Shown piece after piece: positions 2,593 through 58,241 of a stretch of 64,000 nucleotides of DNA. The notes beneath the pieces were generated by a model. That model was not told the origin of the DNA, made no database searches, and saw only the letters and a program-made list of their open reading frames with translations. Made by a program: the position numbers and the translations under genes. Every line of letters starts with the position of its first letter. Position 1 is the first letter of the stretch. The DNA is taken from positions 43,292 to 107,291 of the IMG/VR virus record IMGVR_UViG_3300032050_015761. One strand, 5' to 3'. The stretch comes from a virus.

Positions 2593-3348
2593 ATGATTTT
2601 ATCAATTTGGAAACCTAAATATAAAAAAGTTAAAAGATTAAACACTATTGAATATTATGAGATGGTTGGCTTTGATTTTTTAAATGAGAAGAAAAATAAA
2701 GATTTAATCGTTATATATAAATGTGATAGATGTTGTTCCGATGAAACTCATACTACTCGCTCTCACGTTTTTTTTAATGAAAATTATAAACTTAATGACA
2801 TTAAAAATCAAACTTGTAGAAGTTGTAGGTCGTCAATATCTGAATATGAGATTAAAAAAAGTTTTATACCTTTTAGTGTCGTTAGCGATTCAATAAAGAA
2901 TAGTAATTACGAGCTAATCACCACTGAAAAAACATACAATGTTTCTAAAAATAAATCTCAATTAAAACTTAACATTATTTGCACTAATGGACATAACATT
3001 ACGGCGACGTGGAATAACTGGTCTAAAGGTAAAAGATGTCGTATATGTTACGATAAAGACAGACTTGATAATGCTGTTAAAAATAAAAATGGATGGAGAA
3101 GATATAAATTTTTAGTTTGGAATTACACTGAAAAATCCTATAAAGAATATTATAATGAAATAAACCCATTAAAACATAAAAGAGGGAAATTTTTCCATTT
3201 AGACCATATATATTCAATATATGATGGGTTTTTAAATAATATATCACCTAAAATCATAGGAGGGTTTAAAAATCTTAGAATTATATTAAGTGAGGAAAAT
3301 TTAACAAAAGGTAAAAAAAGTCATATAAAATTAAATCAAATTATATAA
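2593..3348 (+). CDS. HNH-type endonuclease with zinc-binding cysteines
   Basis: 251 residues. Cysteine pairs C44/C47, C75/C78 and C149/C152 (with C130 and H134) point to zinc fingers in the N-terminal and central parts. The C-terminal HLDH (202-205), the following 'DGF..NI.P..IGG..NL' and N236-x-x-K form an HNH nuclease core of the kind found in phage free-standing homing endonucleases. It has no tag and sits between two tagged genes, as expected for a mobile intruder. Start chosen at the ATG 16 bases after the previous stop; no strong signal fixes it. Confidence 0.75.
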   Translation: MILSIWKPKYKKVKRLNTIEYYEMVGFDFLNEKKNKDLIVIYKCDRCCSDETHTTRSHVFFNENYKLNDIKNQTCRSCRSSISEYEIKKSFIPFSVVSDSIKNSNYELITTEKTYNVSKNKSQLKLNIICTNGHNITATWNNWSKGKRCRICYDKDRLDNAVKNKNGWRRYKFLVWNYTEKSYKEYYNEINPLKHKRGKFFHLDHIYSIYDGFLNNISPKIIGGFKNLRIILSEENLTKGKKSHIKLNQII

Positions 3349-27431: not shown

Positions 27432-27439
27432 TATCTTTG
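27432..27439 (+). promoter_or_regulatory. Class 1 promoter for the tRNA cluster
   Basis: TTTGGTAAATT followed by TATCTTTG, with no start codon after it; the transcript would run into the tRNA-like genes. Confidence 0.8.
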
Positions 27440-27549: not shown

Positions 27550-27676
27550 AGTCAGGTGACATTTGGTGTCATTAGTGTGGGAATGAATGTATACGACTGT
27601 CAAGTCAGTGACGTAACTGGCCAAATCCTACTACGGGTAGTATACGGCTAAACAGGTTCGAATCCTGTCCTGACTA
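27550..27676 (+). tRNA. tRNA-like gene A (interrupted, anticodon unresolved)
   Basis: Acceptor AGTCAGG / CCTGACT with discriminator A27676, short D-arm GAC..GTC with GG in the loop, and a canonical T-arm ACAGG-TTCGAAT-CCTGT. Total 127 bases instead of about 75. The middle carries extra hairpins (CAGT/ACTG, TACTA/TAGTA) inside a GTATAC/GTATAC stem. I cannot assign the anticodon. A perfect 9 bp hairpin (CAATGAGTA/TACTCATTG) follows immediately. Confidence 0.55.
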
Positions 27677-27891
27677 CAATGAGTAAGAGATACTCATTGG
27701 TCTTTGGTCAATAGATGGTTAAACAGGACTCGCTAAAATCTGGACAGCGAAAATGCCAGTTCGTAGGGCTCAAGGCGGCAATCACACCCTCTCCTACGTT
27801 GTGTGACTTTTTTAATAGGGGATGCCCTGTAGGTTTCATCAATAGGAAAAAACCGAAATAACTACTCACCGAATCTCAAGTGGGGAAATAT
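27677..27891 (+). other. Structured spacer between tRNA-like genes A and B
   Basis: 215 bases without a gene. It holds hairpins CAATGAGTA/TACTCATTG, CGCT/AGCG, and TCACAC/GTGTGA followed by six T, the last looking like a terminator (27782-27812). No tRNA could be closed here. Confidence 0.4.
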
Positions 27892-28017
27892 AGTCAGGTG
27901 GCGGAATTGGTAGACGCTAGAGCTGGAGTTAGGTCACACGCATTTGGGTTCGAGTCCCGTTAGTTGGGCCAGCTAGGAGAGCCGTAGACCGTGTGGGTTC
28001 AAATCCCACCCTGACTA
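27892..28017 (+). tRNA. tRNA-like gene B, class II (probably Leu, anticodon UAG), interrupted
   Basis: Acceptor AGTCAGG / CCTGACT; D-arm GCG-GAATTGGTAGA-CGC, the form typical of tRNA-Leu; T-arm GTGGG-TTCAAAT-CCCAC. 126 bases. AGCTGG (27921-27926) pairs with CCAGCT (27969-27974) as anticodon stem, but the loop is 42 bases, not 7; GTTAGGT near its 5' side would place anticodon TAG. An 18-base variable region suits class II. The loop holds a T-arm-like GGG-TTCGAGT-CCC. Confidence 0.6.
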
Positions 28018-28124
28018 CTGAATCAGTTTGTCCGTGGGAACGACTTGAAAGAGTCACTGTAATCAAAATCCAATCACTGTCTCACTGGTGTATTGGGCTA
28101 AATGTGAGGAAAAAACGGTCATAT
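28018..28124 (+). other. Spacer between tRNA-like genes B and C
   Basis: 107 bases with a small GACT/AGTC hairpin; no gene seen. Confidence 0.4.
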
Positions 28125-28223
28125 AGTCAGGTGGTGTATATGGTAACACCCTTCATTGTAAGGATAAACAAGGTTGATTGTTTATCTGGAAGGACGAAGT
28201 CGGTTCGAACCCGACCCTGATTA
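28125..28223 (+). tRNA. tRNA-Thr(UGU)-like gene C with a 27-base hairpin insertion
   Basis: Acceptor AGTCAGG / CCTGATT, D-stem GTGT/ACAC, T-arm GTCGG-TTCGAAC-CCGAC, variable loop of 5. The anticodon stem is CCTTC (28150-28154) with GAAGG (28189-28193). Reading 7 loop bases from 28155 gives ATTGTAA, anticodon TGT with U33 and A37, then 27 extra bases (28162-28188) before the 3' strand of the stem. Without them the RNA is 72 bases and well formed. The insertion is a 9 bp hairpin GATAAACAA/TTGTTTATC. Confidence 0.7.
28162..28188 (+). other. Putative mini-intron in tRNA-like gene C
   Basis: 27 bases after anticodon-loop position 38 by the pairing described for gene C; 9 bp stem with a 6-base loop. 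Far too short for a group I intron. The stem sequence equals the inner stem of attC-like hairpins 1 and 3. Confidence 0.55.
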
Positions 28224-28300
28224 CACTTGGTTTCGGTAGAGTTCCAGAAAGCATAGACTGAACAAAAAACAATCTACCTCGTTGACATAGAAGTGTCGTT

Positions 28301-28435
28301 AGTCAGATGGCGGAAACGGAAGACGCAACTGTGATGATTTTGCCGGAAGGTGTAACTCCTTTGTCTTAGGACATAAACAATAGCGGGGTTAATCAGTTCT
28401 CAATCATCGTGTGGGTTAGAATCCCACTCTGATTA
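28301..28435 (+). tRNA. tRNA-like gene D, class II, interrupted and possibly decayed
   Basis: Acceptor AGTCAGA / TCTGATT (base changes on both sides keep pairing), D-arm GCG-GAAACGGAAGA-CGC of Leu type, T-arm GTGGG-TTAGAAT-CCCAC whose loop has A instead of the invariant C56. 135 bases. AACTG (28327-28331) pairs with CAGTT (28394-28398), leaving a 62-base anticodon loop. GATGATT inside this loop is complementary to AATCATC in the variable region. Anticodon uncertain. Confidence 0.5.
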
Positions 28436-28504
28436 CTGAAAATAAAACTCTGGGGTCAGGGTTTTGTTTCGCCGAAAGGTGTTGTTTTCAACGGTTCGAG
28501 TCCG
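28436..28504 (+). other. Spacer with tRNA-like remnant
   Basis: Contains CGCC-GAAA-GGTG and GTTG-TTTT-CAAC hairpins and a T-arm-like CGG-TTCGAGT-CCG just before gene E; probably the 3' half of a broken tRNA. Confidence 0.35.
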
Positions 28505-28617
28505 AGTCAGGTGGCGGAATGTTAGACGCTTAAGGGTTGGATGGATGTTGCAACTGAAAAACAATGAATATAACCTTGAAAAAATCCATCGTGTGAGTTC
28601 AAGTCTCACCCTGACTA
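28505..28617 (+). tRNA. tRNA-like gene E, class II, interrupted
   Basis: Acceptor AGTCAGG / CCTGACT, Leu-type D-arm GCG-GAATGTTAGA-CGC, T-arm GTGAG-TTCAAGT-CTCAC. 113 bases. TAAGG (28531-28535) with CCTTG (28574-28578) closes a 38-base anticodon loop; the 14-base variable region fits class II. As in gene D, a 7-base sequence in the loop (GATGGAT) is complementary to the variable region (ATCCATC). Anticodon uncertain. Confidence 0.55.
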
Positions 28618-58140: not shown

Positions 58141-58241
58141 GAATTAAGTAGTGAATAGTCGGACTTTCTAGAGGTCAAAGCCGAAATGGATATGGTGCCC
58201 GAGACGGGTTCACGTTGTGGGTTCGAATCCCACCTTAATTC
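58141..58241 (+). tRNA. tRNA-like gene F with extra hairpin, anticodon unresolved
   Basis: Acceptor AATTAAG / CTTAATT extended by G58141-C58241, T-arm GTGGG-TTCGAAT-CCCAC. 101 bases. The middle holds a strong hairpin (TCGG-A-CTTT ... AAAG-CCGA, 58159-58184) and CCCG-AGA-CGGG, which may be a class II variable arm. No normal D-arm plus 7-base anticodon loop can be drawn without removing sequence, as in the cluster at 27.5-28.6 kb. Confidence 0.5.

What the first reader, a model, noticed from the sequence alone, without database searches (positions are those of the whole stretch)
27550..28617. Five tRNA-like genes with enlarged, interrupted anticodon regions
Acceptor stems, D-arms and T-arms are well formed, but lengths are 99-135 bases. 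In B, C, D and E a complementary pair in the anticodon-stem position encloses 34-62 bases instead of 7. Insertions of roughly 27-55 bases are far below the size of self-splicing group I introns, the only tRNA introns usually seen in bacteria and phages. They might be removed by an unknown splicing route, or these RNAs may be decoys rather than decoding tRNAs.
Basis: partly seen in the sequence, partly recalled or inferred. Interest (0 to 1): 0.82.

Follow-up and report, generated by a model that had tools for sequence, protein, structure and literature searches.

The report
Phage tRNA-shaped RNAs with swapped cores
These are not interrupted tRNA genes: they belong to an apparently undescribed, widespread class of phage RNAs that keep the two ends and elbow of a tRNA but carry, where the anticodon should be, a folded insert that differs from one gene to the next.

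Summary
Five tRNA-like genes (27550-27676, 27892-28017, 28125-28223, 28301-28435, 28505-28617) share the acceptor AGTCAGG/CCTGACT, a T-arm and, in most, a Leu-type D-arm, with 49-84 nt where an anticodon arm belongs. A sixth, with another acceptor, lies at 58142-58241. The intron reading fails. The same shell occurs in at least 178 fetched contigs (277 elements, 213 core clusters). Cores run from shorter than an anticodon arm to about 140 nt; only 5 of 122 hold an ordinary anticodon arm, against 92 of 135 other tRNAs in the same contigs. Cores are conserved, covarying RNA structures. Four recurring core types show compensatory changes in acceptor and T-stem, three of them in core helices too; several cores are H-type pseudoknots. 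Core-only searches find them almost always inside a tRNA-like shell, while the acceptor can be rewritten with compensation. The window's phage and a complete 60,850-bp phage show no ordinary tRNA in these searches. Best reading: tRNA-shelled structured non-coding RNAs, matured by host tRNA enzymes, whose interchangeable core is the working part, perhaps against a fast-evolving host target. Anatomy is well supported; function is inferred. Rfam has only generic tRNA for them; no description found in the open literature.

The parts
27432..27439 (+). Bacteroidota-type -7 promoter element TATCTTTG (with TTG at about 27408) upstream of the array
   Evidence: sequence; TAnnTTTG lies within 300 nt upstream of the first element in 50 of 144 arrays versus 20 in shuffles
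27550..27676 (+). Element A, 127 nt: acceptor AGTCAGG/CCTGACT, A73, T-arm ACAGGTTCGAATCCTGT; core with S1 TGTATAC 27588-27594 / GTATACG 27640-27646 and possible pseudoknot strand pair GTGGGA 27577-27582 / TCCTAC 27626-27631
   Evidence: the pseudoknot pair was picked by eye
27677..27699 (+). Spacer hairpin CAATGAGTAAGAGATACTCATTG, a motif recurring after tRNAs or elements in other phages
   Evidence: GAGTAAGAGATACTC in 12 loci
27892..28017 (+). Element C, 126 nt: Leu-type D-arm, T-arm GTGGGTTCAAATCCCAC; core pseudoknot S2 AGCTGG 27921-27926 / CCAGCT 27969-27974 and S1 GGTC 27932-27935 / GACC 27987-27990
   Evidence: Rfam tRNA 36.2 bits
28125..28223 (+). Element D, 99 nt: D-arm GTGT..ACAC; nested helices CCTTC 28150-28154 / GAAGG 28189-28193 and GATAAACAA 28163-28171 / TTGTTTATC 28178-28186
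   Evidence: Rfam tRNA 33.5 bits; fold z -2.35 (its minimum-energy fold supports the inner helix)
28270..28300 (+). Spacer motif CAATCTACCTCgTTGAcATAGAAGTgTC, shared with L294 upstream of a related element
28301..28435 (+). Element B, 135 nt: core pseudoknot S2 AACTG 28327-28331 / CAGTT 28394-28398 and S1 GATGATT 28333-28339 / AATCATC 28402-28408; same core type in seven other contigs
   Evidence: Rfam tRNA 29.7 bits; (100% of cells paired in 6 sequences)
28448..28461 (+). Spacer motif CTCTGGGGTCAGGG (hairpin AAAACTCTG/CAGGGTTTT), conserved in L074, L100, L314, L385
28505..28617 (+). Element E, 113 nt: core pseudoknot S2 AGGGTTG 28533-28539 / TAACCTT 28571-28577 and S1 GATGGAT 28540-28546 / ATCCATC 28584-28590
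   Evidence: Rfam tRNA 36.0 bits
58142..58241 (+). Sixth, divergent element: acceptor AATTAAG/CTTAATT, T-arm GTGGGTTCGAATCCCAC, variable-arm-like hairpin GTGCCCG..CGGGTTCAC 3 nt before the T-stem, no ordinary anticodon arm
   Evidence: 25.1 bits, below the gathering score

Best explanation
The genes encode tRNA-shelled structured RNAs. Shown from sequence: each has an acceptor stem, D-arm, T-arm, (mostly) A73 and an encoded C74, and between D-arm and T-arm a core with its own conserved secondary structure (hairpin, nested or H-type pseudoknot) in place of the anticodon and variable arms. The cores are diverse and interchangeable; the shell is constant in fold and usually, but not necessarily, in sequence. 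Inferred mechanism: the array is transcribed as one non-coding RNA from a Bacteroidota-type promoter; host RNase P, 3' processing and CCA addition recognise the acceptor/T-arm shell, release each RNA and protect its ends; the folded core is displayed as on a scaffold and acts in trans. Its hypervariability, with conserved subtypes shared by different phages, fits a fast-evolving partner, most likely a host RNA-binding or defence factor that the core inhibits or titrates. The anatomy and the non-decoding nature are well supported; processing is likely; the molecular target is a guess.
For: Family breadth: 277 elements in 178 contigs, 213 core clusters. Not decoding: ordinary anticodon arm in 5/122 versus 92/135 controls; no ordinary tRNA reported in the window's 107-kb contig; a complete 60,850-bp phage has only two RF00005 hits, taken to be the 107-nt element and a very short one. 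Core structure: helix ending 2-4 nt before the T-stem in 42, 40 and 31 of 122 cores versus 17+/-4; pseudoknot topology with summed score >=28 in 31 of 193 versus 8.6; linker-loop pairing mean 11.54 versus 10.62+/-0.22. Covariation: L047-type 10 pairs changed on both sides, L168-type 8, L009-type pseudoknot 7 including one in each pseudoknot helix; 0/500 shuffles reach these; window-B type 100% paired (its double changes lie in acceptor and T-stem). Core and shell travel together: core-only scans land almost always in a tRNA-like shell, with the acceptor rewritten by compensation in L161, L219, L298, L338, L387, L394 and a different shell in L386. No common partner gene: the commonest neighbouring protein family is in 16 of 178 loci, which argues for host machinery.
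Against: No expression or processing data are available. No match of a window core to the rest of its own phage exceeds chance, and host targets could not be tested. Pseudoknot enrichment is moderate and the cores are architecturally mixed. The strong preference for AGTCAGG is not explained by a pure scaffold role.
Confidence: 0.62

Rival explanations
1. Decoys whose active part is the shell: anticodon-less tRNA mimics that titrate a tRNA-acting host enzyme (synthetase, modification enzyme, EF-Tu, or a tRNA-targeting defence nuclease), the core serving mainly to block decoding or to fit the enzyme.
For: Shell features used by such enzymes are kept (A73, T-loop, D-loop GG); AGTCAGG is far commoner than scaffold use requires (71 of 132 D-arm matches).
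Against: Cores are specifically conserved and covarying and persist while the acceptor sequence changes.
Confidence: 0.2
2. Intron-containing tRNAs: 27-55 nt inserts removed by an unknown or archaeal-like splicing route.
For: Anticodon stem plus U33/R37 slightly above shuffles (13 versus 5.9); element D has CCTTC..GAAGG at the right place.
Against: Members shorter than a tRNA; the supposed introns are conserved structures; no splicing endonuclease or RtcB in the contig; no group I hit in the window or 20 loci; elements with different would-be anticodons share one acceptor.
Confidence: 0.05
3. Type III antitoxin-like RNAs: the folded cores neutralise ToxN-like RNases and the tRNA shell is a processing device.
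For: Pseudoknotted, array-borne, fast-evolving small RNAs; phage ToxI mimics are known (own knowledge).
Against: No repeat-unit structure of ToxI type; toxin families were not searched; many cores are not simple pseudoknots.
Confidence: 0.06
4. Ordinary decoding tRNAs with odd anticodon arms, or decaying tRNA pseudogenes from tRNA-rich phages.
For: Many arrays also hold ordinary tRNAs; a few family members look like real tRNAs (L039 tRNA-Lys UUU, 66.3 bits).
Against: Decay would hit acceptor and T-arm too, yet these covary; cores recur in tens of contigs; phages without detected ordinary tRNAs carry them.
Confidence: 0.05

Closest known systems
Class II tRNA-Leu (RF00005)
   Same: Acceptor, T8-G9, D-arm GGCGGAANNGGNAGACGC, variable-arm position with 2-nt linker to the T-stem, T-loop, A73
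   Different: No ordinary anticodon arm in about 96%; core 16-140 nt with own structures, often pseudoknotted; one acceptor shared by unrelated cores
GOLLD and ROOL RNAs of phages (PMC12286853)
   Same: Structured phage ncRNAs of unknown function near tRNA islands; GOLLD sometimes embeds a tRNA in its linker
   Different: Hundreds of nucleotides, single architecture each; here about 100-nt RNAs inside a tRNA shell, with no Rfam match to them
Stable RNAs C and D of T-even phages (own knowledge, not tested)
   Same: Non-tRNA stable RNAs encoded and processed with a phage tRNA cluster
   Different: Not compared here
Bacterial Y RNA YrlA, tmRNA and viral tRNA-like structures (own knowledge)
   Same: Non-decoding RNAs that mimic tRNA to use tRNA enzymes
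   Different: Families with fixed architecture and partners; none has a constant tRNA shell with many interchangeable cores in arrays
Engineered tRNA scaffold for RNA expression (own knowledge)
   Same: Foreign RNA placed in the anticodon position is stabilised by the tRNA fold
   Different: Artificial; this would be a natural version
B. cereus tRNA-Other pseudo-tRNA (PMC3399842)
   Same: tRNA-like RNA not used in translation
   Different: Single gene, no hypervariable core family

Membership tests
tRNA (decoding) | 7-bp acceptor, T-arm and D-arm | tested here: met
   covariation
tRNA (decoding) | 5-bp anticodon stem with 7-nt loop | tested here: not met
   5 of 122 cores versus 92 of 135 control tRNAs; ARAGORN 0 in window
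Intron-containing tRNA | anticodon arm restored by removing one segment | tested here: not met
   13/122 versus 5.9+/-2.2 in shuffles; family members shorter than a tRNA
Intron-containing tRNA | splicing machinery (EndA, RtcB or group I ribozyme) | tested here: not met
   no PF01974 or PF01139 in the contig; no group I match; host not tested
tmRNA | tmRNA covariance match with tag reading frame | tested here: not met
   no Rfam or ARAGORN tmRNA in the window
GOLLD / ROOL | Rfam covariance match | tested here: not met
   none in the window or 20 related loci
Type III antitoxin RNA | tandem short repeats upstream of a ToxN-like toxin | tested here: inconclusive
   No common protein family beside the arrays, but toxin families were not searched directly; cores of one array are unrelated, not tandem repeats
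RNase P / CCA-enzyme substrate | 5' cleavage and CCA addition in vivo | not testable with these tools
   needs RNA ends from infected cells

The most novel reading that the evidence does not exclude
A natural, modular 'tRNA chassis' system: phages display an evolving repertoire of folded RNA inhibitors or ligands on a constant tRNA-like shell that the host's own tRNA-processing enzymes mature and protect, used as RNA counter-defence.
Probability: 0.3. Interest if true: 0.95.

Novelty: categorically new. Interest (0 to 1): 0.85.

Why it matters
It turns a batch of 'undetermined' or missed phage tRNAs into a large, apparently undescribed RNA class, with hundreds of distinct folded cores to test. 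If the cores are RNA inhibitors of host factors, phages already use the tRNA-scaffold trick that biotechnologists invented, and each conserved core points to a host target. It also shows that tRNA finders (ARAGORN, the generic Rfam tRNA model) miss or mislabel such genes.

Tried and rejected
Antisense or sense matches of the window cores to the rest of the same phage: not above shuffles. Universal sequence motif in cores: none convincing. Conserved partner protein: none, best family in 16 of 178 loci. Annotated phage records with the AGTCAGG shell or with 14 recurrent cores: only MW202828.1. Orthologous array in the closest relative found (L134, 71% identity in the flanking protein): absent at that site; that contig has tRNA matches and no AGTCAGG match. 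Other Rfam families in 20 loci: none but tRNA. Literature searches gave no description; subscription journals and most preprints are not covered. A single universal pseudoknot fold was considered and dropped: sequential and nested cores are also enriched and the L168 type is a long anticodon-position stem.

Full report
Observation. The window is 43,292-107,291 of a 107,291-b IMG/VR virus record. Five tRNA-like genes lie between protein genes at 27550-28617. The generic tRNA covariance model finds four (29.7-36.2 bits), always with the anticodon region as a long insertion; the fifth shares the 7-bp acceptor and T-arm. A sixth with a different acceptor lies at 58142-58241 (25.1 bits). ARAGORN reports none.

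A family, not five oddities. Nearly all have the matching 3' half GTTCRANTC....CCTGACT, although the query did not ask for it, at total lengths of 66-180 nt. With later scans I collected 277 elements in 178 contigs, falling into 213 core clusters of which 172 are singletons (the finder is rule-based and a few entries span two adjacent elements). Several elements per contig are common, interleaved with ordinary tRNAs in some phages. In an acceptor-neutral scan for the D-arm alone, 71 of 132 matches carry AGTCAGG; the other 61 are mainly ordinary tRNA-Leu of 72-84 nt with varied acceptors and about 20 enlarged elements. Bacteroidota-type promoter elements are enriched in these contigs (448 versus 253) and upstream of the arrays (50/144 versus 20), and BLAST of the window's neighbourhood hits mainly Flavobacterium phages, so the hosts are probably Bacteroidota, at least for a large part.

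Not interrupted tRNAs. Among 122 non-redundant cores an ordinary 5+7+5 arm occurs in 5, against 92 of 135 non-family tRNAs from the same contigs by the same test. A stem at the anticodon position with U33 and R37, allowing any intron, occurs in 13 against 5.9+/-2.2 in shuffles. Elements of 66-69 nt are shorter than a tRNA. No tRNA endonuclease (PF01974) or RtcB (PF01139) is in the contig, and no group I intron in the window or 20 related loci. A few members do look like real tRNAs, notably L039 tRNA-Lys(UUU) with the same acceptor, 66.3 bits; the shell may descend from such a tRNA (inference).

What the core is. A helix whose 3' strand ends 2-4 nt before the T-stem is strongly enriched (42, 40, 31 versus 17+/-4): the position of the class II variable arm. 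The segment after the D-arm tends to pair with the loop of that helix (mean 11.54 versus 10.62+/-0.22, 0 of 100 shuffles), giving H-type pseudoknots. Of three two-helix topologies the pseudoknot shows the largest excess (score >=28: 31 versus 8.6; sequential 20 versus 7.0; nested 24 versus 7.3). Architecture is therefore mixed. In the window, C and E form such pseudoknots by the scan, B by its conserved relatives, A by inspection; D is nested.

Covariation. Core-only patterns gave relatives irrespective of the shell. L047-type (23 distinct): 99.2% of cells paired, 10 pairs changed on both sides, 0/500 shuffles. L168-type (11): 8 such pairs, three of them in the 8-bp core stem. L009-type pseudoknot (13): 100% paired, 7 such pairs, one in each pseudoknot helix. 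Window-B type (6): 100% paired with both pseudoknot helices kept; its double changes lie in acceptor and T-stem, the core helices varying on one side only. The shuffle control does not remove relatedness, but sliding the partners by 1-3 columns drops paired cells to 23-54% in all four. Acceptor stems are rewritten with compensation around unchanged cores: GTCAAGG/CCTTGAC (L161), AGTCTTG/CAGGACT (L219), AGTGGTA/TGCCGCT (L298), AGTGCAG/CTGCACT in the complete circular phage MW202828.1 (L338), AGTGAGG (L387, L388), AGTAGAG (L394), and a different shell in L386. Extra hairpins sit in the D-loop of L294, L297, L190 and L393. So selection keeps a tRNA-like shell and a specific core together, not one acceptor sequence.

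Mechanism. Shown: conserved tRNA shell, conserved structured core, no ordinary anticodon arm in nearly all, presence in phages without detected ordinary tRNAs, no common neighbouring protein. Likely: one non-coding transcript, RNase P and 3' processing plus CCA addition by the host (C74 is encoded in 139 of 146). Guess: the core is the effector, probably a ligand or inhibitor of a fast-evolving host factor. The main rival is that the shell itself is the decoy; the persistent AGTCAGG preference is its best argument and is unexplained under the scaffold model.

Novelty. Rfam 15 has no family for these beyond generic tRNA; the open literature searched gives none. GOLLD and ROOL (PMC12286853) are phage ncRNAs near tRNAs but of another size and build. 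Subscription papers were not searchable, so priority is not certain.

Noticed in passing
window 27677-27699; L012, L015, L021, L052, L098, L231, L244, L286: A second recurrent RNA motif, CAATGAGTAAGAGATACTCA followed by a second stem (AGTCTTTGGTCCAAGACT type), directly after tRNAs or elements in 12 fetched loci; probably a separate structured spacer RNA.
   Followed up: partly
window 28448-28461; L074, L100, L314, L385: Spacer hairpin AACTCTGGGGTCAGGGTTTTGTT conserved in phages with unrelated elements.
   Followed up: partly
L004, L020, L056, L092, L115, L125, L312 and others: Recurrent hairpin GTTGACAGCTYGGAAAGACRRGCAAAT just upstream of elements; possible processing or expression signal.
   Followed up: partly
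L132 (crAss-like phage cr4_1) 2625-3070: Unannotated region with an odd tRNA-like element (AGTAAG..CTTACT, apparent 9-nt anticodon-position loop) and a stretch resembling a tmRNA 5' end.
   Followed up: no
L133 (Tenacibaculum phage pT24) 2278-3236: Isolate phage with tRNAs annotated 'Undet' and 'Sup'; spacers between them look like degenerate tRNA-like RNAs.
   Followed up: no
L131 (Flavobacterium phage FL-1) about 2993-3172: Unannotated ~180-nt element with Leu-type D-arm and GGAGTG/CACTCC acceptor: a possible laboratory model.
   Followed up: partly
L338 about 632-700: Second tRNA-like element with only about 11 nt between D-arm and T-arm in the complete phage genome MW202828.1, followed by a terminator-like hairpin.
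   Followed up: no
L081/L203, L047/L190, L119/L259: Cores sharing their 3' half but not their 5' half, suggesting recombination of core modules.
   Followed up: no
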